A DNA stretch of 64,000 nucleotides, taken from NCBI GenBank assembly GCA_036365515.1, contig CM070877.1, positions 85,286,522 through 85,350,521 on the forward strand, in the 5' to 3' direction. The translations under genes and the position numbers were made by a program. Below are positions 10,031 to 53,101 of this stretch, piece after piece (the first letter of the stretch is position 1; each line of letters starts with the position of its first letter). Source of the stretch: Torymus aiolomorphi (lineage: Eukaryota > Arthropoda > Insecta > Hymenoptera > Torymidae). A model generated the notes under the pieces. The model worked only from the letters and a program-made list of their open reading frames with translations. It searched no databases and had not been told where the DNA came from.

Positions 10031-10209
10031 ATGGGTTTGAAGTTTGCAACGTTGCGATCCAACGAAACTTCGATTTTCGAAAAACCACTTTTTTCCACAT
10101 GGATGACATAATGTACTACAAATAATGGAAGAATACATCAAAATTGATTAAAATAAATCAATTCCAAACTACCCCCCACCCCCTAACATGGAATTCGTAA
10201 GATGACCTA
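10031..10209 (+). repeat. Left unique terminal inverted repeat
   Basis: Reverse complement of 52920-53101; a handful of substitutions. It ends at GAGAAAAAAATTCTCTC, where the satellite begins. Confidence 0.9.
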
Positions 10210-13200
10210 AGAGAAAAAAATTCTCTCTCCGCGGCGTTTTCGTATTTCCATACTTTTTATTGCTGGAATTATTTTCTGAGGATACAAAATACCCGCAAAA
10301 AAATTAGGAACCAAATCGACTCCCCGGAACACCCCCAAAAAGCTGATTATATAGGGGTAGTAACGGAAAATTCTCTCTCCGCGGCGTTTGGTATTTCCAA
10401 ATTTTTATTGCTGGAATTATTTTATGAGCACACAAACTACTCGTAAAAAAATTACGAACCAAATCCACTCCCCGGAAAACCCCCAAACAGCTGATTATAT
10501 TGTGACGTCCAGTCAAGGCCGTCAATACTATTAACCACTTTGCCCTTTTTAGCCTGGAGTAAACCAAGAGCTAAGGATGGCCAAGTCTTACAAACGTTTT
10601 ATTTGAACTTATCATTGAAGGAGGGAGGCACAAAAAAGGTTAATATGTTTGAGGAGACAAGCGATTCCAGCTCTGCCCATTCGGCACAGAACGATCTGAA
10701 CGCTCCTCGGAAGTGGGTATATACGAAGGAGTAAGTTGAGAGAAGATTGGAGAGAAGAAATGAAATTCGAAGACAATTTTTTCACTTATACTTAGATTTA
10801 TTCAGAGTTTCCCTCCCTGGGTTACAAGTGGTGTGCTGGTGGCTGGTCGAGTCCGATGGTGGCGAGGAACTTGTCTGTTCAACTCTGATGGTAGCGAGGA
10901 ACTCACTGACGGTGGAGGGACGAGGGAAAAGCTTAGTTCGGTTTTCTCCCTCTTCCCTCCCGCGCCAAGTACGGTTTGGGGGTACTCTCCGTGGGGGAGT
11001 TTACAAAGATTTTTGGGGACAGTTGACTGGTCGCACAAGTATGGGTGGAAAAATAAGGGTGGGCCTAAGGCCCTTCGACGCGGCTAATTGGCTGCGTGGG
11101 GGAAAGGAGCATCCCCCAGCTTTCGGCTGTAGTTTCGACCGTTTCACAGAGATGACGTTACATGTGGTGTTTCTGCGCCTATTTTCATTAATGTTAAATA
11201 CATCGTTTACATAAAAATTCGGTTAACTATTTATTATATAGTGTTAATTATTGTATAAGAACTTAACAAATGACTTATTTTCTAATTAAATCTAATTTTG
11301 TTGTACAAATTTGCACACACTTAATATTTTAATATTTCCAAAATACGTGGTTTAAAATCTAATTAACTATTGAGTAGAAAATACATATTATTTGTACATT
11401 TATAAGCTTAAAACTAACTTAAAAATTAATAATAGTGTCAAAAATATAACGAAGTGACAATTTTTATTCATTCCTTTATATAGGAAAAGATTTTATAAGT
11501 TAAACTAAATTATTCTGGCGAGACGCTTGTATAAGAATTGTTATTTATAACTAAATTTTTATGTACCGTTGCAATATATTATTGTTGCAATATATTATTA
11601 CAAATGATTACACTTTACGAGTTACAGAACCTATTATTTATTATTGTTGTCAGTTATCCTCGTTGTATAGTAAAAGAAAGTAAAGAACCTGCTTCATTTT
11701 TGCAATACTCTATGTGTTTATATATATGTAAGAGATGCAGTTAATACATATGTATCAGAATAAATTCGCGAATACATCTTGCATTACAATATATATATAT
11801 ATGCCTATACTTTAGTAAACTTTTATAAATAGTATATTTAAAAGAGTGTGTAACGTGGTTTTACAAAGATTTTAATTAAAGTACACAAATATCATTATAT
11901 TCTTATTTTTCATTTTATTTATGAGTTTGTTTATTATTTATTACTAAAATGAAGTTTTTGTGAGGTGTTTTATTTAATTATCTTTACTTCTACCAGGCAT
12001 ATTTTCGTAAAATTTAGATCAGCGTAATCAGAAAAATTTAAATTAACATAAGTTAATAACTACAAGTTAAAATGTAAAAATAAAATTAGCTATATGTAAA
12101 GTCGAAGGAAATTGTAACGGTCGAAATTTTATGGGTTTTCGGCGACGCGTAGGCACGCATGTGCACAGCTGGGGTGGCCTGCCTTTCGGGGTAAGGTCGT
12201 AAAATCTTTCCCTTTTATTCACATAGGAGGAAATGCTTTCGCTCTTGATGAAAGTTTCCACTTGCATGGTGTTCGGTTTTTTTTATCTTATTTCGTGGGA
12301 AAGGATCGGAATGCAATGTCTTGCATCTGCATGACATAAAATCTGACCGTTACTTTGTGCGGACCAATGTTTCGAATACGAGAATTCTTTTGGACTGTTT
12401 GGAAGAAAGGTATATTTTCCTTTTTTTTTTTTAAAGCAGATGTTAATAGGATTCAACGTAGATGGTCGAGAAGACCATCAGACGTTACAATATAGGGGTC
12501 GTGACGGAAAAAAAATTCTCTCTCCGCGGCATTTGGTATTTCCAAACTTCTTATTGCTGGAATTATTTTATGAGCACACAAATTACTCGTAAAAAAATTA
12601 CGAACCAAATCCACTTCCCGAAAAACCCCCAAACAGCTGATTATATAGGGGTCGTACCGTAAAAAAAAATTCTCTCTCCGCGGCGTTTCGTATTCCCAAA
12701 CTTTTTATTGCTGGAATTATTTTCTGAGGATACAAACTATCTGAAAAAAAATTAGGAACCAAATCGACTCCCAGGAATACCCCCAAAAAGCTAATTATAT
12801 AGGGGTAGTAACGGAAAAAAAATTCTCTCTCCGCGGCGTTTGGTATTTCCAAACTTTTTATTGCTAGAATTACTTTATGAGTACACAAACTACTCGTAAA
12901 AAAATTACGAACCAAATCCACTCCCCGGAAAATCCCCAAACAGCTGATTATATAGGGGTCGTGACGGAAAAAAAATTCTCTCTCCGCGGCGTTTGGCATT
13001 TCCAAACTTTTTATTGCTGAAATTATTTTATGAGCATACAAACTATCCGTAAAAAAATTACGAACCAAATCAACTCCCCGGAAAACCCTCAAACACCTGA
13101 TTATATAATCAGCTATATAGGGATCGTGACCGAAAAAAAATTCTCTCTCAGCGGCATTTGGCATTTCCATACTTTTTATTGCTGGAATTATTTTATGAGC

Positions 13201-14500
13201 CCACAAACTACTCGTAAAAACATTACGAACCAAATCCACTCCACGTAAAACCCACAAACATCTGATTATATAGGGGTCGTGACGGAAAAAAAAATTCTCT
13301 CCCCGCGGCGTTTGGTATTTCCAAACTTTTTATTGCTGGAATTATTTTATGAGCACACAAACTACTCGTAAAAAAATTACGAACCAAATCCACTTCCCGG
13401 AAAACCTCCAACCAGCTGATTGATTATATAGGGGTCGTGACGGAATGAAAATTCTCTCTCAGCGGCGTTTCGTATTCCCAAACTTTTTATTGCTGGAATT
13501 ATTTTCTGAGGATACAAACTATCTGAAAAAAAATTAGGAACCAAATCGACTCCCAGGAATACCCCCAAAAAGCTAATTATATAGGGGTAGTAACGGAAAA
13601 AAAATTCTCTCTCTGCGGCGTTTGGTATTTCCAAACTTTTTATTGCTGGAATTACTTTATGAGCACACAAACTACTCGTAAAAAAATTACGAACCAAATC
13701 CACTCCCCGGAAAACCCCCAAACAGCTGATTATATAGGGGTCGTACCGTAAAAAAAATTCTCTCTCCGCGGCGTTTGGCATTTCCAAACTTTTTATTGCT
13801 GAAATTATTTTATGAGCATACAAACTATCCGTAAAAAAATTACGAACCAAATCAACTCCCCGGAAAACCCTCAAACACCTGATTATATAATCAGCTATAT
13901 AGGGATCGTGACCGAAAAAAAATTCTCTCTCAGCGGCATTTGGCATTTCCATACTTTTTATTGCTGGAATTATTTTATGAGCCCACAAACTACTCGTAAA
14001 AACATTACGAACCAAATCCACTCCACGTAAAACCCACAAACATCTGATTATATAGGAGTCGTGACGGAAAAAAAATTCTCTCTCCGCGGCGTTTGGTATT
14101 TCCAAACTTTTTATTGCTGGAATTATTTTATGAGCACACAAACTACTCGTAAAAAAATTACGAACCAAATCCACTTCCCGGAAAACCTCCAAACAGCTGA
14201 TTATATAGGGGTCGTGACGGAAAGAAAATTCTCTCTCAGCGGCGTTTGGCATTTCCAAACTTTTTCGTGCTGGTATTGTTTTATGAGTATTCAAACCACC
14301 CGTAATAAAATTTAGAACCAAATCGACTCCCCGGAAAACCCAAAACACCTGATTATATAATCAGCTATATAGGGGTCGTGACGGAAAAAAAATTCCCACT
14401 CCGCGGCGTCTGGCATTTTCAAACTTTTTAAAGCCGGGTTTACTTTTTGAGCATAAAAACTCCATGTAAAATAATTACGAACCAAATCGACTCAAAATAA
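10210..14500 (+). repeat. Left ~153-bp satellite array
   Basis: Tandem monomers marked by ATTCTCTCTCCGCGGC and CAGCTGATTATATAGGGG. About two lie at 10210-10500 and thirteen at 12490-14500, split by the solo LTR. Two monomer types alternate, GAGCACACAAAC versus GAGGATACAAAC. 13030-13248 and 13812-14030 are near-identical, giving a five-monomer higher-order repeat of 782 bp. A 13-bp insertion (ATAATCAGCTATA) marks some units. Because ~153 is divisible by three, long spurious ORFs appear. Confidence 0.95.
10501..12489. mobile_element. Solo LTR, 1,989 bp, in the left array
   Basis: Begins TGTGACGTCC and ends GACGTTACA, so the ends are TG...CA and partly inverted. It interrupts a satellite monomer and is flanked by ATAT on both sides (10497-10500, 12490-12493), a 4-bp duplication typical of gypsy-type integrases. 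No pol domain is found. ORFs such as 10747-11214 (155 aa) have no recognisable domain. The AT-rich half (11200-12100) shows nothing else. A very long LTR is the simplest reading; a different non-autonomous element is possible. Confidence 0.75.
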
Positions 14501-14504
14501 AAAA

Positions 14505-16095
14505 CCGGTTAACAATCAATCATTTTTTATGTTTTTCATGTCTTCTTCCAATCGGTATATTTATTAATACGGACAGGAGCACACTTACGATAGTTGCACA
14601 ATTTGTTTAGCTTTTTTGTTTGCCAAAAACTTCAATTTGAGCCCTGGTAGGTCGGTGTGCTATGAAAATTTTTTAAGGTGGCTCGAGCGGTCTAGTAGAC
14701 CTAAAGCTATGAACATTTTTTACAAAAATTCATTTACACATTCCAATCTGAAAACTGATATGATAGAAAGCAGAGTTCTTAACATACCGGAAAATATTTT
14801 TGTTAGAGAATTTCCAATTTTGCAAAAGTATGTTTTGTGCATTAAAAAAAAAATCAATAAGAAATACAAATCTTTCTTGTTTTTCATTCAACTTTAATTT
14901 GCAAGGTCTCATTTTCTTCCTTGTTAAATTTCAGGGGGAGCCGCCGATATCAAAATTGAAAAATTTTCAAAACCTGCAAAGTTATATGCATTTGTTTCTA
15001 AAATTCAGTGACAAATCTGCAAACAATACAGACAAGATAGGTTAGCATGCAGGCGAGCGTAGCGCGCTCTGCTTTAGAATCTAGTTCCTATTGTAAAAGG
15101 GTGATAGTGATTATTATCGAATTGAAGCTTACAGAGCCAACTTCAGAGCGTTGTCAAAAAATTTCATTTGCGAATTCAGTAGGTAAGATAGTCTGGTGTT
15201 CAGGCTGCTTTAGAATCTAGTACGGGTAAAAAGTAGGGGTGCATGAGTACTCGGCTTGGCGTGTTAGAACTGTATCGGGCTTTTTCTTCGAACTTGAATC
15301 GAGTACACTATACTTTGAACTACTTGAGTCAGGTCGAACTACTCGGATCAACTCGAACTACTCGAATGAAGTCAAGCTACTCGAATTAAGTAGTTTGATC
15401 TAGATAGAACCAGCTGGCTCTCTTAGTAACTTATAAAATGATATATATACTTAATTAGCTGAATGTAATTTGTTTTCGGATTTATATACTACTTAGCGAT
15501 AATAATTATAATTATCCTAAGATTACTTATAATTATGTATAATTTTTTATTTATAATTCTTTTATAATTTATTCACTACTATGCACTGGAAGTTCGAAGT
15601 GTCCTATTATTTCAAACCACTCGATCGAAGTTCGAACTACTCGAACTATTTCTAACTACTCAATATATCAAGTAAAACATTTGATTCGACTTGAGTTCGT
15701 CGAGTTGAGTTTATAGAGCAAATAGTTCGGATCTTCGAGTAGTCGTGCACCCCTAGTAAAAAATTACTGACATTTATCAATACGTATTGATTAAATTTTC
15801 AGGGGAAAGGCTAGCATCCTTATCTACACCTATATCATTTCCAAAGATATTCCCTAAATATTAGTATTTGTTACTCGTAAAGAAAATTATTTTATAAACG
15901 TGCGTGTGCAACGAAGCTCCACAAGTTTCCTATTTAAAAAATTACTAATACCAATGTGTACCTAAAGTATAATTTTTTTTCTGTCAACTGCTTTATATAT
16001 AAAGACAAGAAAAACACGTTTTACTAATTTACTTACTGTTTTTATTTGATAAAATCAATATTTTTCTTCAAGATGCAATAGTTTCTTACAAACAA
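14505..16095 (+). repeat. Direct repeat DR1, interrupted by a MITE
   Basis: 14512-14668 matches 37880-38030, and 15761-16095 matches 38088-38615 minus a hairpin insert, both in the same orientation, with lower similarity between. It starts right where the left satellite array ends. 14669-15233 holds AT-rich sequence with TGCTTTAGAATCTAGT repeated at 15070 and 15206; no gene is seen. Confidence 0.75.
15234..15755. mobile_element. hAT-like MITE rich in CTCGAACTA repeats
   Basis: The inverted ends TAGGGGTGCATGAGTACTCG and its partner (ending ...GTGCACCCCTA) match at 17 or so positions. Flanking 8-mers GTAAAAAG (15226-15233) and GTAAAAAA (15756-15763) agree at 7 of 8. The interior has degenerate TCGAACTACTCGAA units. 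No transposase. Confidence 0.75.
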
Positions 16096-17853
16096 AAAAG
16101 TTTTTTTTATAACGGACTAATAGTATTTAATTTTAATTTTTATAAAAATGCAGCGTCGCTGAGATAATATTTTTGTTAATAGTAGGCACATCATATCCAA
16201 TCACATTTACCGAAATTTTGACAAGAGTTGATAGCCTAAAAAAGTTGGTACAGCGATTTTTACCATATTCTGGGAGGTTTTTTTATTAATGTTTATAAGT
16301 ATAAAATTGTCTTCAGAGTAAACGGAGGAAATATCTAAATTTAGGCCTCTTCTGATGCCCCATGAGCTTATCCTTGCATAACAGTGAGTTCTATGTAGTG
16401 GAACATGTTACTGGAAGTGGATTATATAAATATTTACTTGACTTATAGTTAGCTAAATATGTGAGAACCATAGACTCCCTGTCGAAAAAAATTAAAGTGT
16501 TAAAGGCACATCTGCCGGACAAAGTTTTTTTGTTCCTTAAGCCTCTCTGAATGTCAACAAAATTATTTACTTTTAAATCTAAAATTAAGAATAATTTCGT
16601 CTTTTTTCTAAACGACGACACCTTATAAATACTGTCATCTACCTATTTGATCTTTGAAAGAATAATTATCTACACTGAAATTATTGCTTTAAAAGTTACA
16701 GTTTTCTAAGTGATAAACGTTATTACAATTATAACTTCCTATAATAATTTGCTACTATCGATAATTCAATAAATATTTGAAAATATTATATATCAATTTT
16801 TTTTCAATCATCACATCAGCTTAACGTATTTCTTATAATTAGTAAATAAAAAATTAAATGGGATGACTGATGTTCCTTATTCACTTATTTACTTCAATTA
16901 CAATATGAATTACGTAAAGCTGATGTAATGATTAAAAAAATATTGATATTTTATATTTTTAGATATTTATTGAATTATCGCGTGTAACAAATTATTATGA
17001 GAAGTTATAATTGTAATAACGATTATTCCTTAGAAAACTGTAACTTTTAAAGTAATAATTTCAGTGTAGGTAATTATTCATGCAAAGATCAAATAGTTAG
17101 ATGCTAGTATTTATAAGTGTCGTCGTTTAGAAAAAAGACGAAATTATCCTTAATTTTTAGATTTAAAAGTAAATAATTTTTTTCACATTCAGAAAGGCTT
17201 AAAGAACAAGAAAACTTTGTCTTGTAGATATGCCTTCAAAATTAAATATCTTTTCCGAGTTTCGTCATTTAAAAAAAAGTGAAACTTCTTATCAATCCAA
17301 AATTGACTTATAAGTGTCGACGAAAAATGATACTACTAAATTGAGCTTGTACATATTTTTTTTAACTTTCAGAAAAACTTTGTCCTGTAGATGTGTCTTC
17401 AAAGAAATTTTTTATTTTTATCGAGACATAAGAGGGAAATAACTTTTATAGTACTGTGACGTATCTATGGTTCTCAGATATTTAGCTAAGTCAAGCAAAT
17501 ATTTATATAATCCACTTCCAGTAACATGTTCCACTACATAGAACTTACTGTTATGCAAGGATAAGCTCATCGGACATCAGAAGAGGCCTAAATTTAGATA
17601 TTTCCTCCACGTACTGAAGACAATTTTATACTTAAAACGTTGCTAAAAAAAACTGCTAGAATATGGTAAAAAAACGCTGTACCAATTTATTTAAGCTATC
17701 AACTCTTGTTAAATTTTCGGTAAATTTGATTTTGGATACGATGTGCCTACTATTAACAAAAATATTATCTCCGCGATGCTGCATGCTTATAAAAATTAAA
17801 ATTAAATACTATTTGTCCGTTATAAAAAAAATTTTTTGTTTTTATATTTTCCT
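16091..17853. mobile_element. Fold-back (long inverted repeat) element
   Basis: The left arm (16091 to about 16838) is the reverse complement of the right arm (about 16910-17853), separated by a ~70-bp AT-rich loop. Landmarks: GTGGAACATGTTACTGG near 16400 and its complement near 17525. The right arm is ~190 bp longer, owing to a partial internal duplication around 17190-17400. No convincing ORF; 16391-16621 (76 aa) and 17663-17884 (73 aa) are chance frames in the arms. Confidence 0.85.
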
Positions 17854-18145: not shown

Positions 18146-18228
18146 TCACTTTTGTTTTAAAGATTTTTTTCATATCGAATCCTAGTTCAATGAACCTATT
18201 TATTCAATATATCGATGACTGACCGGAA

Positions 18229-20924: not shown

Positions 20925-21782
20925 TTAATTATTAACAGCCTCGTATACATCTTTTTCTAGTGTCGGTAAATAAAGACATTTTATTTCTACTAATAGTCTA
21001 TCCACATTCGAATTACCAAAGTTTGAATAAATCATCCGGTTTTTTACATTAGATATCAATTCGTCTTTGTGGTCGTTGAAAAGTTTAAGAAATGTGGACC
21101 CGTCGAAACATTTATCAAGTTCGCGACTGTTCTCGTGCATTTTCAAACTGTCTATCATTACATCATACATGACATTAACATATGTGGACATATCCTCTAA
21201 CTCGCGAAGACGAAACTCTATACACTCGCGCATGCTTTTTAATATTAGAAAAGTACGTCGCATGATCACAACACTTGGAAGACTCTCAACTTTTTTCTTC
21301 TTTCGCGCCGGTGCACTCTCGTCGTCGTCGTTGTCATCTGCGTCGACGGCCGTGATGATTGACTCTGTATCGATGCGCAATCCGTCGTTGGTATCCCAAT
21401 CTTGCGCCTCATGCTGATACCGGCGCCGGCTCCGTAATGACACAGGCTCCACTGTTTTCTTTTTCTGATTGATTCCCAGTACTCTAGAGTTATAAGCGGT
21501 AGTCAAATTAATCTCGTGCTCAGTTAGGTCGATTTTTGTAAACTCTTGCTTGTGCCCGTACAGATGACACATTACTGCAGGAAAATGCGTGGTGAATTCC
21601 TCCCACGCGGTGATTTCCATTGTTATGTATTTGCGTGGCGAAGTATCGCCACCGAATTGAATCACTGTACGGAAATGCCCACCGTAATATTGCAATCCAA
21701 GGTATGCAAATTTCGAGTGAGACTTATTGAGCGCGTAACTTGTGTTAAAAAGCAAGTTTTGCGGAAGATCGTCTTGATTCAT
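20925..21782 (-). CDS. Polinton accessory ORF of unknown function (285 aa)
   Basis: Intact ORF starting MNQDDLPQNLLF. It is the last minus-strand gene of the cassette. Residues ~1-100 look globular, ~105-175 contain a charged, low-complexity linker (RSRRRYQHEAQDWD, DADDNDDDES, then ARKKKKVE, a possible nuclear localisation signal), and the remainder is predicted helical. I recognise no enzyme motif. Its place within a set of Polinton genes and its open frame suggest a virion or regulatory accessory protein; function is not assigned. Confidence 0.7.
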   Translation of the reverse strand: MNQDDLPQNLLFNTSYALNKSHSKFAYLGLQYYGGHFRTVIQFGGDTSPRKYITMEITAWEEFTTHFPAVMCHLYGHKQEFTKIDLTEHEINLTTAYNSRVLGINQKKKTVEPVSLRSRRRYQHEAQDWDTNDGLRIDTESIITAVDADDNDDDESAPARKKKKVESLPSVVIMRRTFLILKSMRECIEFRLRELEDMSTYVNVMYDVMIDSLKMHENSRELDKCFDGSTFLKLFNDHKDELISNVKNRMIYSNFGNSNVDRLLVEIKCLYLPTLEKDVYEAVNN

Positions 21783-22352
21783 TTTAAAATAGCTGTCACA
21801 AACTTGTTTTAAAAAAGAAATACTAATGCTCGTGGCTGAAGCAATGTCGTTGTACGAGTGTACTTTGTGTGTGTGTGTGTAAAGAAATACTGAGGCGTGC
21901 TTTCGACAGCTGATTTGACTGCTGGTGCTGCTGGTGCTGCGTGTTCTACTAGACTACGTAACGTCGTCGGTTGCGCTATTCGTTTGGGTGTGCGCCTCGA
22001 GAGGTGGTAGGGGACGCCGACAGTGGGGGATGGCGGCGCAGCCAATGAGAGCACGAGTATGACGCAACGTACCCGTTGGTGGGGAAAGGTGGCGAGAAAA
22101 ATATTAGGTTTATGGTTGTACCCAATGACTGTGGAAAGTGTTTTCAATAATTGTCGTTATGAATGCGTCCATTGTTTAGCGTTTTCAATCACGTACTCTC
22201 GACAAAGATTTTCGTGAGAAGGAAATGCGTGCTGTGGCGCGTACCCGATAACAGCGTTAAGTGGTTCTAAGCACAGTTCACCCTGGCCATGAATGCGTCA
22301 ATTGTTCAACGAATTTAACGGACAGTTTCAAGAGTGTGCTCTCGATTTTACG

Positions 22353-23620: not shown

Positions 23621-23628
23621 TTTTTTTT

Positions 23629-25765: not shown

Positions 25766-25768
25766 GAT

Positions 25769-27085: not shown

Positions 27086-27101
27086 GTCTACTCGTGGTTT
27101 T

Positions 27102-28193: not shown

Positions 28194-28201
28194 CTTATCG
28201 C

Positions 28202-39244: not shown

Positions 39245-42200
39245 AAACTAAATCCAGCAATAAAAAGTTTCGAAATACCAAACGCCGCGGAGAGAGAATT
39301 TTTTAACAGTCGTGGCCCCTATATAATCGGCTGTTTGGGGGATTTCCGGGAAATCGATTTGGTTCGTAATTTTTTTATGGGTAATTTGTATGCTCAAAAT
39401 ACAATGCCAGCTATAAAAAACTTGGAAATACCAAATGCCGCTGAGAGAGAATTTTTTTCCCGTCACGACCCCTATATAGCTGATGACATAATCAGATGTT
39501 TGGGGGTTTTCCGGGGAGTCGATTTGAATCGTAATTTTTTTACGAGTAGTTTATGTGCTCATAAAATAACTCCAGCAATAAAAAGTTTGGAAATGCCAAA
39601 TGCCGCTGAGAGAGAATTTTTCTCGGTGCTGACCTCTAATATAGCTGATTATATAATCAGATGTTGGGGGTTTTCCGGGGAGTCGATTTGGTTAGTAATT
39701 TTTTTACGAGTGGTTTGTGTGCTCATAAAATAATTCCAACCATAAAAAGTTTGAAAATGCCAAATGCCGCTGAGAGAGAATTTTTTTTCGGTCACGACCC
39801 CTATATAGCTGATTATATAATAAGGTGTTTGAGGGTTTTTCGGGGAGTCGATTTGGTTCTTAATTTTTTTCCGGGTAATTTGTATGCTCATAAAATAATT
39901 TCAGCAATAAAAAGTTTGGAAATGCCAAACGCCGCTGAGAGAGAATTTTTTTTTATTCACGACCCCTATATAATCAGCTGTTTGGGGGTTTTCCGGGTAG
40001 TTGATTTGGTTCGCAATTTTTTTAGAGGGAGTTTTTATGCTCAAAAAGAATCTCGGACTTTAAAAAGTTAGGAAATGCCAGACGCCGCGAAGTGAGAATT
40101 TTTTTTTCCGTCACGTCCCCTATATAATCGGCTGTTTGGGGTTTTTTCGGGGAGTCGATTTGGTTCCTAATTTTTTTACAGGGAGTTTGTATCCTCACAA
40201 AATAATTCCAGCAATAAAAAGTTTGGAAATACCAAACGCCGCGGAGAGAGAATTTTTTTTCCGTTACTGCCCCTATATAATATACTTTTTGGGGGTGTTC
40301 CAGTGAGTCGATTTGGTTCCTAATTTTTTTTCGGGTATTTTGTATCCTCAGAAAATAATTCCAGCAATAAAAAGGTTGGCAAAACCAAACGCCGAGGAGA
40401 GAGAATTTTTTTTCCGTCACGACCCCTATATAATCAGCTATTTGGGGGTTTTCCGGGGAGTGGATTTGGTTCCTAATTTTTTTACGAGTAGTTTGTGTGC
40501 CCATAAAATAATTCCAGCAATAAAAACTTTGGAAATGCAAAACGCCACTGAGAGAGAATTTTTTTTTTTTTCACAACCCCTATATAATCAGCAGTTTGGG
40601 GGTTTTCCGGGTAGTTGATTTAGTTCGCAATTTTTTTACAGGGAATTTTTATGCTCAGAAAGAATTTCGGCAATAAAAAGTGTGGAAATGCCAAACGCCG
40701 CTGAGAGAGAATTTTTTTTCCGTCACGACCCCTATATAATCGGCTGTTTGGGGGTTTTCCGGGGAGTCCATTTAGTTGGTAATTTTTTTACAGTAACTTT
40801 GTGTGCTCATAAAATAATTTCAGCAATAAAAAGTTTGGAAATGACAAACGCCGCGGAGAGAGAATTTTTTTTCCGTCACGACCCCCATATAATCAGCTGG
40901 TTGGGGTTTTTTCGGGGAGTCAATTTCGTCGTAATTTTTTTGCGGGTACTTTGTATCCTCAAAAAATAATTCCAGCAATAAAAAGTTTGGAAATACCAGA
41001 CGCCGCGGAAGGACAATTTTTTTTCCGTTACTAGCCCTATATAATCAGCTTTTTGGGGGTGTTCCGGGGAGTCGATTTGGTTCCTAATTTTTTTGCGGGA
41101 ACTTTGTATCCTCAGAAAATAATTCCACCAATAAAAAGTTTGGAAATATCAAACGCCGCAGAGAGACAATTTTTTTTCCGTTACTAGCCCTATATAATCA
41201 GCTTTTTCGGGGTGTTCCGGGGAGTCGATTTGGTTCCTAATTTTTTGTCGGGTATTCTGTATCCTCAGAAAATAATTGCAGCAAGAAAAAGTTTGGAAAT
41301 ACCAAACGCCGCGGAGAGAGAATTTTTTTTCCGTCACGACCCCTATATAATCAGCTTTTTGGGGGTGTTCCGGCAAGTACATTTGGTTCCTAATTTTTTT
41401 GCGGGTACTTTGTATCCTCAGAAAATAATTCCAGCAATAAAAAGTTTGTAAATACCAAACGCCGCAGAGAGACAATTTTTTTTCCGTTACTCGCCCTATA
41501 TAATCAGCTTTTTGGGGGTGTTCCGGGGAGTCGATTTGTTCCTAATTTTTTTCCGGGTATTTTGTATCCTCAGAAAATAATTGCAGCAAGAAAAAGTTTG
41601 GAAATACCAAAGGCCGCGGAGAGAGAATTTTTTTTACCGTCACGACCCCTATATAATCAGCTTTTTGGGTGTGTTCCGGGAAGTCCATTCGGTTCCTAAT
41701 TTTTTTGCGGGTACTTTGTATCCTCAGAAAATAATTCCAGCAATAAAAAGTTTGGAAATACCAAACGCCGCAGAGAGACAATTTTTTTTCCGTTACTCGC
41801 CCTATATAATCAGCTTTTTGGGGGTGTTCCGGGGAGTCGATTTGTTTCTAATTTTTTGTCGGGTATTTGGTATCCTCAGAAAATAATTGCAGCAAGAAAA
41901 AGTTTGGAAATACCAAACGCCGCGGAGAGAGAATTTATTTTCCGTCACGACCCCTATATAATCAGCTGTTTGGGGGTTTTCCGGAGAGTGGATTTGGTAC
42001 ATAATTTTTTTACGAGTAGTTTGTGTGCCCATAAAATAATTCCAGCAATAAAAAGCTTGGAAATACCAAACGCCGCAGAGAGAGAATTTGTTTCCTTTAC
42101 TACCCATATATAATCAGCTTGTTGGGGGTGTTCCGGGGAGTCGATTTGGTTCCTAATTTTTTTTCGGGTTGTTTGTATCCTCAGAAAATAATTGCAGAAA

Positions 42201-45200
42201 GAAAAAGTTTGGAAATACCAAACGGCGCGGAGAGAGAATTCTTTTCCGTCACGATCCCTATATAATCAACTTTTTGGGGGTGTTCCGGGAAGTCCATTTG
42301 GTTCCTAATTTTGTTGCGGGTATTTTGTATCCTCAGAAAATAATTCCAGCAATAAAAAGTTTGGAAATACCAAACGCCGCGGAGAGAATTTTCTTTCCGT
42401 TACATTCCTATATAATCAGCTTTTTTGGGGTGTTCCGGGGAGTCAATTTGGTTCCTAATTTTTTTTCGGGTATTTTGTATCCTCAGAAAATAATTCCAGC
42501 AATAAAAAGTGTGGAAATGCCAAACGCCGCTGAGAGAGAATTTTGTTTTTTTCACGACCCCTATATAATCAGCTGTTTGGGGGTTTTCCGGGTAGTTGAT
42601 TTGGTTCGTAATTTTATTGCGGGTACTTTGTATCCTCAGAAAATAATTCCAGCAATAAAAAGTTTGGAAATACCAAACGCCGCGAAGAGACAATTTTTTT
42701 CCCGTACTAGCCCTATATAATCAGCTTTTTGGGGATGTTCCGGAGAGTCGATATGGTTCCTAATTTTGTTGCGGGTACTTTGTATCCTCAGAAAATAATT
42801 CCAGCAATAAAAAGTTTGGAAATACCAAACGCCGCGGAGAGAGATTTTTTTTCCGTCACGACGCCTATATAATCAGCTTTTTTGGGGTGTTCCAGGGAGT
42901 CGATTTGGTTCCTAATTTTTTTTCGGGTATTTTGTATCCTCAGAAAATAATTCCAGCAATAAAAAGTTTGGAAAAACCAAACGTCGGAGAGAGAGATTTT
43001 CTTTTCCGTTACTGGCCCTATATAATTAGCTTTTTTGGGGTGTTCCGGGGAGTCGATTTGGTTCCTAATTTTTTTTCGGGTATTTTGTACCCTCAGAAAA
43101 TAATTGCAGCAAGAAATAGTTTGGAAATAACAAACGCCGCGGAGAGAGAATTTTTTTTCCGTTACTACCCCTATATAATAAGTTTTTTTGGGGTGTTCCG
43201 AGGAGTCGACTTGGTTCCTAATTTTTTTGGGGGTATTTTGTATCCTCAGAAAATAATTCCAGCAATAAAAAGTTTGGAAATAACAAACGCCGCGGAGAGA
43301 GAATTTTTTTTCCGTTACTACCCCTATATAATAAGCTTTTTTGGGGTGTTCCGGGGAGTCGATTTGGTTCCTAATTTTTTTTCGAGTATTTTGTATCCTC
43401 AGAAAATAATTTCAGCAATAATAAGTGTGGAAATGCCAAACGCCGCTGAGGGAGAATTTTGTTTTTCTTCACGACCCCTATATAATCAGCTGTTTGGGGG
43501 TTTTCCGGGTAGTTGATTTGGTTCGCAATTTTTTTACAGGGAGTTTTTATGCTCAAAAAGAATTACGAGCTTTAAAAAGTTAGGAAATGCCAGACGCCGC
43601 TAAGTGAGAATTTTTTTTTCCGTCACGACCCCTATATAATCGGCTGTTTGGGGATCTTCCGGGGAGTCGATTTAGTTAGTAATTTGTTTACAGTAACTTT
43701 GTGTGCTCATAAAATAATTCCAGCAAGAAAAAGTTTGGAAATACCAAACGCCGCGAAGAGAGAATTTTTTTCCGTTACTAGCCCTATATAATCAGCTTTT
43801 TTGGGGAGTTCCGGGGAGTCGATTTGATTCCTAATTTTTTTTCGGGATTTTGTATCCTCACAAAATAATTGCAGCAAGAAAAAGTATGGAAATACCAAAC
43901 GCCGCGGAGAGAGAATTTTTTTTCCGTCACGACCCCCATATAATCAGCTTTTCGGGGGTGTTCCGGGAAGCCCATTTGGTTCCTAATTTTTTTGCGGGTA
44001 CTTTCTAACCTCAGAAAATAATTCCAGCAATAAAAAGTTTGGAAATACAAAGGCCGCGGAGAGAGAATTTTTTTTCCGTCGTGACCCCCATATAATCAGC
44101 TTTTCGGGGGTGTTCCGGGAAGCCCATTTGGTTCCTAATTTTTTTGCGGGTACTTTGTATCCTCAGAAAATAATTCCAGCAATAAAAAGTTTGGAAATAC
44201 CAAACGCCGCAGGGAGAGAATTTTTTTCCTTTACTACCCCTATATAATCAGCTTTTTGGGGGTGTTCCGGGGAGTCGATTTCGTTCCTAATTTTTTTTAT
44301 GTATTTCGTATGTTCAGAAAATAATTCCAGCAATAAAAAGTTTGGAAATACCAAACGTCGCGGAGAGACAACTTTTTTTCCATTACTAGCCCTATATAAT
44401 CAGCTTGTTGGGGGTGTTACGGGGAGTCGATTTGGTTCCTAATTTTTTCTCGGGTATTTTGTATCCTCAGAAAATAATTTCAGAAATAAAAAGTGTGGAA
44501 ATGCCAAACGCCGCTGAGAGAGAATTTTGTTTTTTTCAAGACCCCTATATAATCAGCTGTTTGGGGGTTTTCCGGGTAGTTGATGTGGTTCGTAATTTTA
44601 TTGCGGGTACTTTATCTCCTCAGAAAATAATTCCAGCAATAAAAAGTTTGGAAATACCAAACGCCGCGAAGAGACAATTTTTTTCCGTTACTAGCCGTAT
44701 ATAATCAGCTTTTTGGGGATGTTCCGGAGAGTCGAATTGGTTCCCAATTTTTTGTCGGGTATGTTGTATCCTCAGAAAATAATTGCAGCAAGAAAAAGTT
44801 TGGAAATACCAAACGCCGCGGAGAGAGAATTTTTTTCCGTCACGACCCCTATATAATCAGCTTTTTGGGGGTGTTCCGGGAAGTACATTTGGTTCCTAAT
44901 TTTTTTGCGGGTACTTTGTATCCTCAGAAAATAATTCCAGCAATAAAAAGTTTGGAAATACCAATCGCCGCGGAGAGAGAATTTTTTTTCCGTTACTCGC
45001 CTATATAATCAGCTTTTTGGAGGTGTTCCGGGGAGTCGCTTTTGTTTCTAATTTTTTCTTGCGGATTTTGTATCCTCAGAAAATAATTCCAGCAATAAAA
45101 AGTTTGGAAATACCAAACGCCGCGGAGAGAGAATTTTTTTTCCGTCACGGCCCCTATATAATCAGCTATTTGGGGGTTTTCCGGAGAGTGGATTTGGTAC

Positions 45201-48200
45201 ATAATTTTTTTACGAGTAGTTTGTGTGCCCATAAAATAATTCCAGCAATAAAAAGCTTGGAAATACCAAACGCCGCAGAGAGAGAATTTTTTTCCTTTAC
45301 TACCCCTATATAATCAGCTTGTTGGGGGTGTTCCGGGGAGTCGATTTGGTTCCTAATTTTTTTTTCGGGTATTTTGTATCCTCAGAAAATAATTCCAGCA
45401 ATAAAAAGTTTGGAAATACCAAACGCCGCGGAGAGAGAATTTTTTTTCCGTTACTATACCTATATAATCAGCTTTTTTGGGGTGTTCCGGGGAGTCGATT
45501 TGGTTCCTAATTTTTTTTCGGGTATTTTGAATCCTCAGAAAATAATTGCAGCAAGAAATAGTTTGGAAATAACAAACGCCGCGGAGAGAGAATTTTTTTT
45601 CCGTTACCACCCCTATATAATCAGCTTTTTTGGGGTGTTCCGAAGAGTCGACTTGGTTCCTAATTTTTTTCCGGGTATTTTGTATCCTCAGAAAATAATT
45701 CCAGCATTAAAAAGTTTGGAAATACCAAACGCCGCGGAGAGAGAATTTTTTTTCCGTTACTACCACTTTATAATCAGCTTTTTGGGGTATTCCGGGGAGT
45801 CGATTTGGTTCCTAATTTTTTTTCGGGTATTTTGTATCCTCAGAAAATAATTCCAGCAATAAAAAGTTTGGAAATACCAAACGCCGCGGAGAGAGAATTT
45901 TTTTTCCGTTACATCCCTATATAATCAGCTTTTTTGGGGTGTTCCGGAGAGTCGATTTGGTTCCTAATTTTTTTTCGGGTATTTTGTATCCTCAGAAAAT
46001 AATTCCAGCAATAAAAAGTGTGGAAATGCCAAACGCCGCTGAGAGAGAATTTTGTTTTTTTCACGACCCCTATATAATCAGCTGTTTGGGGGTTTTCCGG
46101 GTAGTTGATTTGGTTCGTAATTTTATTACGGGTACATTGTATCCTCAGAAAATAATTCCAGCAATAAAAAGTTTGGAAATACCAAACGCCGCGAAGAGAC
46201 AATTTTTTTTCCGTTACTAGCCCTATATAATCAGCTTTTTGGGGATGTTCCGGAGAGTCGATTTGGTTCCTAATTTTGTTGCGGGTACTTTGTATCCTCA
46301 GAAAATAATTCCAGCAATAAAAAGTTTGGAAATACCAAACGCCGCGGAGAGAGAATTTTTTTCCGTCACGACCCCTATATAATGAGCTTTTTGGGGGGGT
46401 TCCGGGGAGTCGATTTGGTTCCTAATTTTTTGTCGGGTATTTTGTATCCTCAGAAAATAATTCCAGCAATAAAAAGTTTGGAAATACCAAACGCCGCGGA
46501 GAGAATTTTTTTTCCGTTACTATCCCTATATAATCAGCTTTTTTGGGGTGTTCCGGGGAGTCGATTTGGTTCCTAATTTTTTTTCGGGTATTTTGTATCC
46601 TCAGAAAATAATTCCAGCAATAAAAAGTTTGGAAAAACCAAACGTCGGAAAGAGAGATTTTTTTTTCCGTTACTGGCCCTATATAATTAGCTTTTTTGGG
46701 GTGTCCCGGGGAGTCGATTTGGTTCCTAATTTTTTTTCGGGTATTTTGTATCCTCAGAAAATAATTGCAGCAAGAAATAGTTTGGAAATAACAAACGCCG
46801 CTGAGGGAGAATTTTGTTTTTCTTCACGACCCCTATATAATCAGCTGTTTGGGGGTTTTCCGGGTAGTTGATTTGGTTCGCAATTTTTTTACAGGGAGTT
46901 TTTATGCTAAAAAGAATTACGAGCTTTAAAAAGTTAGGAAATGCCAGACGCCGCTAAGTGAGAATTTTTTTTTCCGTCACGACCCCTATATAATCGGCTG
47001 TTTGGGGATTTTCCGGGGAGTCGATTTAGTTAGTAATTTGTTTACAGTAACTTTGTGTGCTCATAAAATAATTGCAGCAAGAAAAAGTTTGGAAATACCA
47101 AACGCCGCGGAGAGAGAATTTTTTTTCCGTCACGACCCCCATATAATCAGCTTTTCGGGGGTGTTCCGGGAAGCCCATTTGGTTCCTAATTTTTTTGCGG
47201 GTACTTTGTATCCTCAGAAAATAATTCCAGCAATAAAAAGTTTGGAAATACAAACGCCGCAGGGAGAGAATTTTTTTCCTTTACTACCCCTATATAATCA
47301 GCTTTTTGGGGGTGTTCCGGGGAGTCGATTTCGTTCCTAATTTTTTTTCGGGTATTTCGTATGTTCAGAAAATAATTCCAGCAATAAAAAGTTTGGAAAT
47401 ACCAAACGCCGCGGAGAGACAATTTTTTTCCGTTACTAGCCCTATATAATCAGCTTGTTGGGGGTGTTACGGGGAGTCGATTTGGTTCCTAAGTTTTTCT
47501 CGGGTATTTTGTATCCTCAGAAAATAATTTCAGCAATAAAAAGTGTGGAAATGCCAAACGCCGCTGAGAGAGAATTTTGTTTTTTTCAAGACCCCTATAT
47601 AATCAGCTGTTTGGGGGTTTTCCGGGTAGTTGATGTAGTTCGTAATTTTATAGCGGGTACTTTGTATCCTCAGAAAATAATTCCAGCAACAAAAAGTTTG
47701 GAAATACCAAACGCCGCGAAGAGACAATTTTTTTCCGTTACTAGCCCTATATAATCAGCTTTTTGGGGATCTTCCGGAGAGTCGATTTGGTTCCCAATTT
47801 TTTGTCGGGTATTTTGTATCCTCAGAAAATAATTGCAGCAAGAAAAAGTTTGGAAATACCAAACGCCGCGGAGAGAGAATTTTTTTTCCGTCACGACCCC
47901 TATATAATCAGCTTTTTGGGGGTGTTCCGGGAAGTACATTTGGTTCCTAATTTTTTTGCGGGTACTTTGTATCCTCAGAAAATAATTCCAGCAATAAAAA
48001 GTTTGGAAATACCAATCGCCGCGGAGAGAGAATTTTTTCTCCGTTACTCGCCTATATAATCAGCTTTTTGGAGGTGTTCCGGGGAGTCGCTGTTGTTTCT
48101 AATTTTTTCTTGCGGATTTTGTATCCTCAGAAAATAATTCCAGCAATAAAAAGTTTTGAAATACCAAACGCCGCCGAGAGAGAATTTTTTTTCCGTCACG

Positions 48201-51200
48201 GCCCCTATATAATCAGCTGTTTGGGGGTTTTCCGGAGAGTGGATTTGGTACATAATTTTTTTACGAGTAGTTTGTGTGCCCATAAAATAATTCCAGCAAT
48301 AAAAACTTGGAAATACCAAACCCCGCAGAGAGAGAATTTTTTTCCTTTACTACCCCTATATAATCAGCTTGTTGGGGGTGTTCCGGGTAGTCGATTTGGT
48401 TCCTAATTTTTTTTTCGGGTAGTTGTATCCTCAGAAAATAATTGCAGCTAGAAAAAGTTTGGAAATACCAAATGCCGCGGAGAGAGAATTTTTTCCGTCA
48501 CGATCCCTATATAATCAGCTTCTTGGGGGTGTTCCGGGAAGTCCATTTGATTCCTAATTTTTTTTCGGGTATTTAGTATCCTCAGAAAATAATTCCAGCA
48601 ACAAAAAGTTTGGAAATACCAAACGCCGCGGAGAGAGAATTTTTTTTCCGTTACTATACCTATATAATCAGCTTTTTTGGGGTGTTCCGGGGAGTCGATT
48701 TGGTTCCTAATTTTTTTTCGGGTATTTTGTATCCTCAGAAAATAATTCCTGCAATAAAAAGTTTAGAAAAACCAATCGTCGCAGAGAGAGATTTTTTTTT
48801 CCGTTACTAGCCCTATATAATCAGCTTATTAGGAGTGTTCCGGGGAGTCGATTTGGTTCCTAATTTTTTTTCGGGTATTTAGTATCCTCAGAAAATAATT
48901 CCAGCAACAAAAAGTTTGGAAATACCAAACGCCGCGGAGAGAGAATTTTTTTTCCGTTACTATACCTATATAATCAGCTTTTTCGGGGTGTTCCGGGGAG
49001 TCGATTTGGTTCCTAATTTTTTTTCGGGTATTTTGTATCCTCAGAAAATAATTCCTGCAATAAAAAGTTTGGAAGAACCAATCGTCGCAGAGAGAGATTT
49101 TTTTTTCCGTTACTAGCCCTATATAATTAGCTTTTTTGGGGTGTTCCAGGGAGTCGATTTGGTTCCTAATTTTTTTTCGGGTATTTTGTATCCTCAGAAA
49201 ATAATTGCAGCAAGAAATAGTTTGGAAATAACAAACACCGCGGAGAGCGATGTTTTTTTCCGTTACCACCCTATATAATCAGCTTTTTTGGGGTGTTCCG
49301 AGGAGCCGACTTGGTTCCTAATTCTTTTGCGGGTATTTTGTATCCTCAGAAAATAATTCCAGCAATAAAAAGTTTGGAAATACCAAACGCCGCGGAGAGA
49401 GAATTTTTTTCCGTCACGACCCCTTTATAATCAGCTTTTTGAGGATGTTCCGGGAAGTCCATTTGGTTCCTAATTTTGTTGCGGGTACTTTGTATCCTCA
49501 GAAAATAATTCCAGCATTTAAAAGTTTGGAAATACCGAACGCCGCGGAGAGACGATTTTTTCTCCGTTACTAGCCCTATCTAATCAGCTTGTTGGGGGTG
49601 TTCCGGGGAGTCGATTTGGTTCCTAATTTTTTTTCGGGTATTTTGTATCCTCAGAAAATAATTCCAGCAATAAAAAGTTTGGAAATACCAAACGCCGCGG
49701 AGAGAGAATTTTTTTCCGTTACTAGCCCTATATAATCAGCTTTTTTGGGGTGTTCCGGGGAGTCGATTTGGTTCCTAATTTTTTTTCGGGTATTTTGTAT
49801 CCTCAGAAAATAATTTCAGCAATAAAAAGTTTGGAAAAACCAAACGTTGCAGAGAGAGATTTTGTTTTCAGTTACTAGCCCTATATAATTAGCTTTTTTG
49901 GGGTGTTCCGGGGAGTCGATTTGGTTCCTAATTTTTTTTCCGGTATTTTGTATCCTCAGAAAATAATTGCAGTAAGAAAAAGTTTGGAAATAACAATCGC
50001 CGCGGAGAGAGAATTTTTTTTCCGTTACTACCCCTATATAATCAGCTTTTTTGGGGTGTTCCGGGGAGTCAACTTGGTTCCCAGTTTTTTTGCGCGTATT
50101 TTGTATCCTCAGAAAATAATTTCAGCAATAAAAAGTGTGGAAATGCCAAACGCCGCTGAGGGAGAATTTTGTTTTTCTTCACGAACCCTATATAATCAGC
50201 TGTTTGGGGGTTTTCCGGGTAGTTGATTTGGTTCGCAATTTTTTTACAGGGAGTTTTTATGCTCAAAAAGAATTTCGAGCTTTAAAAAGTTAGGAAATGC
50301 CAGACGCCGCTAAGTGAGAATTTTTTTCCGTCACGACCCCTATATCATCGGCTGTTTGGGGATTTTCCGGGGAGTCGATTTAGTTCGTAATTTTTTTACA
50401 GTAACTTTGTGTGCTCATAAAATAATTTCAGCAATAAAAAGTTTGGAAATGACAAACGCCGTGGAGAGAGAATTTTTTTTCCGTCGCGACCCCCATATAA
50501 TCAGCTGTTTGGGGTTTTTTCGGGGAGTCAATTTGGTTCGTAATTTTTTTGCGGGTACATTGTATCCTCAGAAAATTATTCCAGCAATAAAAAGTTTCGA
50601 AATACCAAATGCCGCGGAGAGACAATATTTTTTCTGTTACTAGCCCTATATAATCAGCTTTTTAGGGATGTTCCGGGGAGTCGATTTGGTTCCTAATTTT
50701 TTTGCGGGTACTTTGTATCCTCAGAAAATAATTCCAGCAATAAAAAGTTTGGAAATACCAAACGCCGCGGAGAGACAATTTTTTTTCCGTTACTAGCCCT
50801 ATATAATCAGTTATTTGGGGGTTTTCCGGGGGGGCGATATAGTTCCTAATTTTTTTTCGGGTAGTTTGTATCCTCCGAAAATAATTCCAGCAATAAAAAG
50901 TTTGGAAATGACAAACGCCGCGGAGAGAGAATTTTTTTTCCGTCGCGACCCCCATATAATCAGCTGTTTGGGATTTTTTCGGGGAGTCAATTTGGTTCGT
51001 AATTTTTTTGCGGGTACATTGTATCCTCAGAAAATTATTCCAGCAATAAAAAGTTTGGAAATACCAAATGCCGCGGAGAGACAATTTATTTTCTGTTACT
51101 AGCCCTATATAATCAGCTTTTTAGGGATGTTCCGGGGAGTCGATTTGGTTCCTAATTTTTTTGCGGGTACTTTGTATTCTCAGAAAATAATTCCAGCAAT

Positions 51201-52919
51201 AAAAAGTTTGGAAATACCAAACGCCGCAGAGAGACAATTTTTTTCCGTTACTAGCCCTATATAATCAGTTATTTGGGGGTTTTCCGGGGGGGCGATTTAG
51301 TTCCTAATTTTTTTTCGGGTAGTTTGTATCCTCCGAAAATAATTCCAGCAATAAAAAGTTTGGAAATACCAAACGCCGCGGAGAGAGAATTTTTTTTTCC
51401 ATCACGACCCCTATATAATCAACTGTTTGGGGGTTTTCGTGGGAGTGGATTTGGTTCGTAATATTTTTACGAGTAGTTTGTGTGCTCGTAAAATAATTCC
51501 AGCAATAAAAAGTTTGGAAATACCAAACGCCGCGGAGAGAGAATTTTTTTTCCGTTACTAGCCCTATATAATCAGCTTTATTGGGGTGTTCCGGGGAGTC
51601 GATTTGGTTCCTAATTTTTTTTCGGGTATTTTGGATCCTCAGAAAATAATTCCAGCAATAAAAAGTTTGGAAATACCAAACGCCGCGGAGAGAGAATTTT
51701 TTTTCCGTTACTAGCCCTATATAATCAGCTGTTTTGGGGTGTTCCGGGGTGTCGATTTGGTTCCTAATTATTTTCGGGTATTTTGTATCCTCAGAAAATA
51801 ATTCCAGCAATAAAAAGTTTGGAAATACCAAACGCCGCGGATAGAGAATTGTTTTTCCGGTACTACCCCTATATAATCAGCTGTTTGGGGTTTTTTCGGG
51901 GAGTCAATTTGGTTCGTAATTTTTTTGCGGGTACATTGTATCCTCAGAAAATTATTCCAGCAATAAAAAGTTTGGAAATACCAAATGCCGCGGAGAGACA
52001 ATTTTTTTTCTGTTACTAGCCCTATATAATCAGCTTTTTAGGGATGTTCCGGGGAGTCGATTTGGTTCCTAATTTTTTTGCGGGTACATTGTATCCTCAG
52101 AAAATTATTCCAGCAATAAAAAGTTTGGAAATACCAAATGCCGCGGAGAGACAATTTTTTTTCTGTTACTAGCCCTATATAATCAGCTTTTTAGGGATGT
52201 TCCGGGGAGTCGATTTGGTTCCTAATTTTTTTGCGGGTACTTTGTGTGCTCATAAAATAATTCCAGCAATAAAAAGTTTGGAAATACCAAACGCCGCGGA
52301 GAGAACTTTTTTCCTTTACTACCCCTATATAATCAGCTTTTTGGGGGTGTTCCGGGGAGTCGATTTGGTTCCTAATTTTTTTGCGGGTATTTTGTATCCT
52401 CAGAAAATAATTCCAGCAATAAAAACTTTGGAAATACCAAACGCCGCGGAGAGAGAATTTTTTTTCCGTTACTAGCCCTATATAATCAGCTTTTTTGGGG
52501 TGTTCCGGGGAGTCGATTTGGTTCCTAATTATTTTCGGGTATTTTGTATCCTCAGAAAATAATTCCAGCAATAAAAAGTTTGGAAATACCAAACGCCGCG
52601 GAGAGAGAATTGTTTTTCCGTTACTACCACTTTATAATCAGCTTTTTGGGGGTGTTCCAGGGAGTCAATTTGGTTCATAATTTTTTTGCGGGTATTTAGT
52701 ATCCTCAGAAAATAATTCCAGCAATAAAAAGTTTGGAAATACCAAACGCCGCGGAGAGAACTTTTTTCCGTTACTACCCCTATATAATCAGCTTTTTGGG
52801 GGTGTTCCGGGGAGTCGATTTGGTTCCTAATTTTTTTGCGGGTATTTTGTATCCTCAGAAAATAATTCCAGCAATAAAAACTTTGGAAATACCAAACGCC
52901 GCGGAGAGAGAATTTTTTT
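39245..52919 (-). repeat. Right ~153-bp satellite array (inverted)
   Basis: About 13.7 kb, close to 90 monomers, same satellite as 10210-14500 in opposite orientation. Monomer signposts on the plus strand: CCCCTATATAATCAGC and AACGCCGCGGAGAGAGAATT. Two main monomer types (GTGTGCTCATAAAAT and TTGTATCCTCAGAAAAT). Higher-order blocks recur: GGAGGTGTTCCGGGGAGTCG at about 45017 and 48068 (3.05 kb apart), CAGACGCCGCTAAGTGAG at about 43590, 46944 and 50297 (3.35 kb apart). The many ORFs seen on both strands are frames of the repeat. Confidence 0.95.
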
Positions 52920-53101
52920 CTCTTAGGTCATCATACGAATTCCGTGTTAGGGGTGGGGGATAGTTTGGAATTGATTTATTTTAATCAATTTTGATGTATT
53001 CTTCCATTATTTGTAGTACATTATATCATCCATGTGGAAAAAAGTGGTTTTTCGAAAATCGAATTTTCGTTGGATCGCAACGTTACAAACTTCAAACCCA
53101 T
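52920..53101 (-). repeat. Right unique terminal inverted repeat
   Basis: Reverse complement of 10031-10209. Ends with ...CAAACCCAT at 53101. Confidence 0.9.

What the first reader, a model, noticed from the sequence alone, without database searches (positions are those of the whole stretch)
10031..53101. 43-kb element with a Polinton gene set between inverted satellite arrays
Both borders are base-precise: ~180-bp inverted ends, an exact 8-bp duplication, and flanks that rejoin to one gypsy protease frame. Inside are polymerase, ATPase, integrase, protease and capsid genes of a Polinton/Maverick. Known Polintons are about 15-25 kb with simple TIRs of some hundred bases, so an element of this size with satellite-built ends is unusual and may be an undescribed lineage.
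Basis: partly seen in the sequence, partly recalled or inferred. Interest (0 to 1): 0.9.

Follow-up and report, generated by a model that had tools for sequence, protein, structure and literature searches.

The report
Satellite-armed transposon carrying Polinton genes
A 43-kb DNA unit in what is likely a wasp genome holds a broken set of virus-like (Polinton) genes between two inverted satellite arms, and its 8-bp insertion footprint suggests that a different kind of transposon, likely a foldback (Mutator-type) one, carried it there rather than the Polinton's own enzyme.

Summary
The ends at 10031 and 53101 are inverted copies (96.8% identical in the outermost 186 bp), flanked by an exact 8-bp duplication; the flanks rejoin into one open gypsy frame. 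Both ends run into one 153-bp satellite: 15 units left, split by a 2.0-kb solo-LTR-like insert, 90 right, in mirrored order. The core holds polymerase, ATPase, integrase, a protease-like ORF and a double-jelly-roll capsid gene; polymerase, integrase and capsid genes are broken. Mavericks leave 6-bp duplications; this unit has 8 bp and starts ATGGG. No long Polinton terminal repeat above chance was found in the core. The ends match foldback elements such as Tetris and Tm1 (tandem-repeat arms, 8-10 bp duplications). Diverged direct repeats flank the gene block, so the core is patchwork. Best reading: a foldback-type transposon carrying a Polinton as cargo (0.5). A Polinton lineage with 8-bp duplications is not excluded. 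The decisive search of the host assembly got no answer in 13 tries.

The parts
10023..10030 (.). target duplication TAGATTAT, left copy
   Evidence: flush with 10031
10031..10216 (+). outer flank domain of left inverted arm
   Evidence: 96.8% identical to 52916-53101 inverted
10217..14493 (+). left 153-bp satellite array, 15 units, interrupted by an insert
10501..12489 (.). solo-LTR-like insert (TG...CA ends, 4-bp ATAT on both sides) inside the left array
   Evidence: read by eye
14490..16136 (+). direct repeat D, left copy (diverged; with left-specific insertions)
   Evidence: three matching segments to 37851-38656, same orientation
16087..17844 (.). long palindrome, arms about 81% identical
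20925..21953 (-). 342-aa ORF, narrow distribution (2 database relatives)
23092..23632 (-). protease-like region: two overlapping ORFs in different frames, taken as one broken gene (inferred)
   Evidence: Peptidase_C5 E 0.0086 on the ORF 23321-23632, below cut-off; none on 23092-23454
24425..25768 (-). major capsid protein, one in-frame stop
   Evidence: 1756 relatives of the longer piece; 89.6% to P0001 by tblastn; double-jelly-roll fold of an intact relative
26338..27087 (-). 249-aa ORF beside the capsid gene, no family match above cut-off
27102..28208 (-). rve integrase with chromodomain, two same-frame ORFs split by a stop
29375..30085 (-). A32-type packaging ATPase
   Evidence: Pox_A32 5.9e-7, above cut-off
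30611..33410 (-). family B DNA polymerase, broken into five ORFs
   Evidence: DNA_pol_B_2 3.6e-24, 4.8e-6 and 1.3e-4 on three of them; PF00136 0.0078 on a fourth; the fifth by position
33757..34626 (-). 289-aa ORF with 16 database relatives
37851..38656 (+). direct repeat D, right copy
38997..39220 (.). small inverted-repeat element; a second copy lies in the gypsy LTR at 56160-56385
39245..52919 (-). right 153-bp satellite array, 90 units, inverted to the left one
52916..53101 (-). outer flank domain of right inverted arm
53102..53109 (.). target duplication TAGATTAT, right copy
8892..9472 (-). gypsy LTR on the left of the insertion
   Evidence: 94.5% and 92.0% in two pieces to 55724-56548
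55724..56548 (-). gypsy LTR on the right, with a small insert
   Evidence: primer-binding-like site just inside (recalled motif)

Best explanation
The unit at 10031-53101 has inverted, satellite-built ends flanked by an exact 8-bp duplication and a core with a broken Polinton gene set, and it was likely moved as cargo of a foldback-type (predicted Mutator-like) transposon, not by the Polinton's own integrase. Shown: the two ends carry a single-insertion footprint in a gypsy element; the arms are homologous and mirrored; the Polinton genes are there and at least three are broken; no long Polinton terminal repeat above chance was found inside. Inferred: a transposase supplied from elsewhere in the genome would bind the outer 186-bp domain and perhaps the satellite units, and cut both ends. 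Inferred: the Polinton and its AT-rich surroundings lay between the two arms before the move. Inferred: the arms then differed in length by unequal exchange within the satellite. Inferred: the cargo had already lost, or never kept, its own Polinton ends, so the Polinton was a passenger and decayed.
For: 8-bp flush duplication and restored gypsy frame. Foldback Tetris has an outer domain, tandem ~220-bp arm repeats and 8-9 bp duplications (8-10 bp with rearranged copies; passages of PMC4079207). Mutator/foldback Tm1 has tandem-repeat arms of unequal length and, in 45 of 53 complete elements, 8-10 bp duplications (passages of PMC3169594). Intact vertebrate Mavericks have 6 bp, and AG/AGT ends are reported (passages of PMC8097293); rve integrases typically leave 6 bp (passages of PMC12220804). 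Best inverted match between the core flanks scores 33 against 30-35 in 8 shuffles. Mirrored unit order: Spearman 0.74 over 15 left units against 90 right units. D direct repeats (K2P 0.13-0.15) are more diverged than the outer domains (0.033), so the patchwork is likely older than the insertion. GC steps separate AT-rich flanks (0.28-0.29) from a GC-richer 19.3-kb zone. Ising's composite TE moved DNA lying between foldback elements (passages of PMC6431247).
Against: No transposase other than the integrase was found inside, but only 20 of the 50 flank ORFs of at least 50 aa were scanned (counted in 102, 103). No copy of the arms without Polinton genes was seen, because the assembly search did not complete. 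A composite of two whole foldbacks should keep inner arms; no satellite match at E 1e-6 lies between 14.5 and 39.2 kb. ATGGG is not a Mutator terminus that I know (recalled). Duplication-like sequences of 7-23 bp are reported beside some Polinton-like viruses, though often offset or of other origin (PMC12220804). That no long Polinton ends survive inside also fits the satellite arms being the Polinton's own ends.
Confidence: 0.5

Rival explanations
1. An undescribed Polinton lineage: the satellite arms are the Polinton's own terminal repeats and its integrase makes 8-bp duplications.
For: Near-complete gene set; the only long inverted ends found around it are the satellite arms. Arms are mirrored and homologous. 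Named capsid relatives in the list are hymenopteran.
Against: 8-bp duplication and ATGGG ends break two reported features. Direct repeats D and GC steps make the core look assembled.
Confidence: 0.25
2. Nested insertions in place: a foldback entered the gypsy, then a Polinton and other elements entered its middle, and the Polinton's ends were lost by deletion. The 43 kb never moved as a unit.
For: The window is full of nested insertions: solo-LTR-like insert at 10501-12489, small elements at 38997 and 56160. An AG...CT pair at 20350/38709 with a 6-bp flank (one mismatch) and 9 inverted bases spans 18.4 kb, a normal Polinton size; at 9 bases none of 60 shuffles had such a pair.
Against: An intact Polinton arriving after the arms (96.8% identical) should still show long terminal repeats; none exceed chance. 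For the 20350/38709 pair, 13 of 60 shuffles give as many pairs at 8 bases and 3 of 60 have one at 10 bases, where the window has none.
Confidence: 0.18
3. Assembly artefact: satellite reads collapsed or joined unrelated contigs at 14.5 or 39.2 kb.
For: Long satellite arrays are hard to assemble; no reads were available.
Against: Exact flush duplication, restored gypsy frame, matched LTRs and mirrored unit order would not arise from a random join; the window has no N.
Confidence: 0.05

Closest known systems
Tetris foldback transposon, Drosophila virilis (PMC4079207, passages)
   Same: Outer flank domain, then tandem repeats (~220 bp) in the inverted arms, 8-9 bp duplications, kb-sized satellite arrays, transposase not found in the copies
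   Different: No protein-coding capacity, so no viral genes; sequences were not compared here
Tm1 Mutator/foldback family, root-knot nematodes (PMC3169594, passages)
   Same: Arms of variable, unequal numbers of tandem repeats; mostly 8-10 bp duplications
   Different: Repeats of 13-15 bp; one member encodes a Mutator-like transposase; no Polinton genes mentioned in the passages seen
Polinton/Maverick of Hymenoptera
   Same: Polymerase, ATPase, integrase, protease-like and capsid genes; capsid piece 90% identical to an unnamed database relative and up to 75% to Nasonia proteins
   Different: 8-bp duplication, ATGGG ends, satellite arms, no AG-type terminal repeat found
Ising TE composite elements of Drosophila (cited in PMC6431247)
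   Same: DNA lying between foldback elements moves as one large unit
   Different: Hundreds of kb of chromosome rather than a viral element; flanking foldbacks complete (recalled)
Teratorn (piggyBac plus herpesvirus, PMC10175614)
   Same: A virus-derived gene set carried between the ends of an unrelated DNA transposon
   Different: piggyBac ends and an encoded transposase, about 180 kb, fish

Membership tests
Polinton/Maverick | Family B DNA polymerase, A32-type ATPase | tested here: met
   PF03175 3.6e-24 and PF04665 5.9e-7; polymerase broken into five ORFs
Polinton/Maverick | rve integrase | tested here: met
   rve on two adjacent same-frame ORFs, 0.0036 and 0.00085 (both below cut-off), profile parts consecutive, with a chromodomain 1.6e-7 above cut-off
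Polinton/Maverick | Adenovirus-type cysteine protease | tested here: inconclusive
   Peptidase_C5 0.0086, below cut-off; no PDB match for the other ORF
Polinton/Maverick | Double-jelly-roll major capsid protein | tested here: met
   Window piece finds PBCV-1, Sputnik and Mavirus capsids (model pLDDT 60, TM about 0.3); intact relative P0001 finds Sputnik at 1.5e-15, TM 0.67; no PDB match by sequence profile
Polinton/Maverick | Penton (minor capsid) protein | tested here: inconclusive
   Candidate ORF 26338-27087 has no family match above cut-off
Polinton/Maverick | 6-bp target duplication | tested here: not met
   8 bp, flush at both ends, frame-restoring
Polinton/Maverick | Termini with AG or AGT repeats (reported for vertebrate Mavericks) | tested here: not met
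   Ends are ATGGGTTTG
Polinton/Maverick | Own long terminal inverted repeats around the gene block, inside the satellite arms | tested here: not met
   Best inverted match at shuffle level; a 9-base AG...CT pair is left open
Foldback (Mutator-type) transposon | Long inverted arms with internal tandem repeats | tested here: met
   15 and 90 units of 153 bp, mirrored
Foldback (Mutator-type) transposon | 8-10 bp target duplication | tested here: met
   8 bp; range
Foldback (Mutator-type) transposon | Mutator-like transposase encoded by the family | tested here: inconclusive
   None in 20 of 50 flank ORFs; non-autonomous copies lack it and the genome could not be searched
hAT transposon | 8-bp duplication of form nTnnnnAn or nnnTAnnn (recalled) | tested here: not met
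   TAGATTAT fits neither; one site only

The most novel reading that the evidence does not exclude
A hybrid virus-transposon family: a foldback transposon with satellite arms has taken over a Polinton and spreads it as one 40-kb unit using 8-bp cut-and-paste ends, an insect counterpart of Teratorn, with satellite arrays that can lengthen the arms freely.
Probability: 0.2. Interest if true: 0.75.

Novelty: new variant of a known kind. Interest (0 to 1): 0.55.

Why it matters
If the ends belong to a foldback transposon, virus-like DNA can be moved as cargo by unrelated transposons, as Teratorn showed for a herpesvirus in fish, and satellite arrays can ride in, and grow from, the arms of a mobile element. 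If the ends are the Polinton's own, the 6-bp rule and AG ends are not universal. One search of the host assembly for the 186-bp outer domain would separate the two.

Tried and rejected
Rejected: an intact Polinton nested inside (no inverted repeat above chance). An AG...CT scan gave one pair, 20350/38709. In one search the window has one such pair at 8 and at 9 bases and none at 10; of 60 shuffles, 13 have at least one at 8, none at 9, and 3 at 10. I do not rely on it, but it is not excluded. Rejected: a 6-bp duplication by re-reading the border (it would leave the termini unequal and shift the gypsy frame; reasoned). Rejected: hAT target consensus (recalled). Led nowhere: capsid, satellite and terminus searches of viral contigs and the satellite in prokaryote genomes, all without a relative (the tool says that records of the window's own or a near genome may be left out); PDB sequence searches with the capsid profile (none), a protease-region ORF (none) and an integrase ORF (retroviral integrases only at E 0.27 or worse). 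The outer domain resembles the satellite unit only weakly (17 of 500 shuffles as good), so a shared origin is not claimed. The mirrored-order p-value (0.0016) is optimistic because the left array contains an internal duplication (identical or near-identical units). My early self-comparison missed palindromes through its own filter; one search corrected that. The array at 58.3-62.8 kb, which I first took for a second foldback, is only a remark: no duplication was seen.
Full report
What is there. The 43,071-bp stretch 10031-53101 begins and ends with inverted copies of one sequence: 93.5% identical over about 475 bp and 96.8% in the outer 186 bp. TAGATTAT stands flush outside both ends. Removing the unit with one TAGATTAT and joining the flanks gives one uninterrupted minus-strand frame through the gypsy protease region; on either side the frame otherwise runs into the element. 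The gypsy's LTRs lie at 8892-9472 and 55724-56548. The two ends thus carry the footprint of one insertion. That everything inside came along at that moment is inferred.

The arms. Inside the 186-bp outer domain each arm becomes a 153-bp satellite: 15 units on the left and 90 on the right (consensus from these 105 units). The last two left units are degenerate. The left array is split by a 1,989-bp insert at 10501-12489 with TG...CA ends and ATAT on both sides, which looks like a solo LTR (read by eye). The order of unit types is mirrored (Spearman 0.74 between left rank and best right match, 15 left units against 90 right units). The outermost left unit matches the outermost right one best, in a tie with the third. 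The three 164-165-bp variants of the right array are units 86-88 of 90 counted from outside; those of the left are units 6, 11 and 14 of 15. The left array has an internal duplication, so the p-value of 0.0016 is optimistic. The arms are thus copies of one inverted structure, not two unrelated satellites.

The core. On the minus strand between 20.9 and 35.6 kb lie a family B DNA polymerase broken into five ORFs, an A32-type ATPase, an rve integrase with chromodomain split by a stop, a protease-like region in two overlapping ORFs (only one matches adenovirus endoprotease, weakly), and a major capsid gene with one stop. The capsid piece has 1756 relatives at E 0.001 or better among 2744 candidates, 120 of them listed. 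The best is 90% identical and unnamed; named ones include Trichomalopsis, Nasonia, Trichogramma, Venturia, Leptopilina, Athalia and ants. The closest named are pteromalid wasps, so the host is likely a chalcid wasp (inferred). The piece in the window gave a poor model (pLDDT 60) that still finds PBCV-1, Sputnik and Mavirus capsids. An intact relative gave pLDDT 83 and Sputnik at 1.5e-15. Some ORFs are narrow: the 342-aa ORF at 20925 has 2 relatives and the 289-aa ORF at 33757 has 16.

Is the end structure Polinton-like? Intact vertebrate Mavericks have 6-bp duplications, and AG or AGT ends are reported (passages of PMC8097293). rve integrases of Polinton-like viruses typically leave 6 bp; the same paper mentions one 7-bp case with a mismatch and duplication-like sequences of 7-23 bp beside some others, often offset from the repeat (passages of PMC12220804). 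Here the duplication is 8 bp and the terminus is ATGGG. A Polinton nested inside with its own ends was sought: the best inverted alignment between 14510-23100 and 34501-39245 scores 33, against 30-35 in eight shuffles. A scan for AG...CT ends with matching 6-bp flanks gave one pair, 20350/38709, spanning 18.4 kb with 9 inverted bases and one flank mismatch. Of 60 shuffles, 13 have at least one such pair at 8 bases, none at 9, and 3 at 10, where the window has none. I do not rely on it, but it is the one hint of lost Polinton ends.

What the ends resemble. Tetris of Drosophila virilis has an outer flank domain, then ~220-bp tandem repeats, 8-9 bp duplications and kb-sized arrays; its authors suggest Mutator from its duplications (passages of PMC4079207). 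Tm1 of root-knot nematodes has tandem-repeat arms differing in length within one element, 8-10 bp duplications in 45 of 53 complete elements, and a Mutator-like transposase in one kind of member (passages of PMC3169594). The review of giant transposons recalls Ising's composite elements, which move DNA lying between foldback elements (passages of PMC6431247), and Teratorn joins a herpesvirus to piggyBac ends (passages of PMC10175614).

Signs of patchwork. Direct repeats in three segments, 14490-16136 and 37851-38656, lie on either side of the gene block. They are 86-88% identical at aligned sites; the third segment is 76.5% in the longer alignment. Their K2P distance of 0.13-0.15 exceeds that of the outer domains (0.033) and of the two gypsy LTR pieces (0.034 and 0.085), so they are likely older than the insertion; gene conversion between the arms could exaggerate this. 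GC content steps from 0.29 to 0.40 at 18.0 kb and falls to 0.28 at 37.26 kb; between, it is 0.40-0.51 except for an AT-rich dip (0.28) at 35.5-36.5 kb. That leaves a GC-richer zone of 19.3 kb. A palindrome occupies 16087-17844.

Verdict. The satellite arms and 8-bp footprint make the unit look like a foldback transposon at its ends; the cargo is a decayed Polinton. It is not filed as a Mutator member, because no transposase was found (20 of 50 flank ORFs scanned; counts) and the genome could not be searched. It is not filed as a Polinton by its ends, because features tested there were not met. The gene set is Polinton.

Novelty. In the listings of searches (open-licence PMC papers only) I saw no paper describing a Polinton with 8-bp duplications or a foldback carrying a Polinton; I read passages of some, none in full, and the founding Polinton paper is not held. 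Relatives were seen only as proteins; no DNA of another copy was available.

Noticed in passing
58356-62839: A 295-bp tandem array with a short inverted copy at its right end (about 77-79% identical): another satellite with inverted arms and no Polinton genes; no target duplication seen.
   Followed up: partly
38997-39220 and 56160-56385: Two copies (87-88%) of a ~225-bp inverted-repeat element, one in the core of the unit and one inside the right gypsy LTR.
   Followed up: partly
16087-17844: Long palindrome with ~0.87-kb arms (81%) starting where the left direct repeat ends; nature unknown.
   Followed up: no
20925-21953: 342-aa ORF with only two database relatives, both unnamed and shorter: a Polinton-associated gene of very narrow range or a captured gene.
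   Followed up: partly
8892-9472 and 55724-56548: The host gypsy has gag and protease regions between LTRs but no room for reverse transcriptase: likely an internally deleted copy.
   Followed up: partly
3974-7723: Copia-type retrotransposon with gag and polymerase ORFs, left of the gypsy.
   Followed up: no
15238-15755: Small inverted-repeat element with AGGGGTGCA ends inside the left direct repeat (by eye).
   Followed up: no
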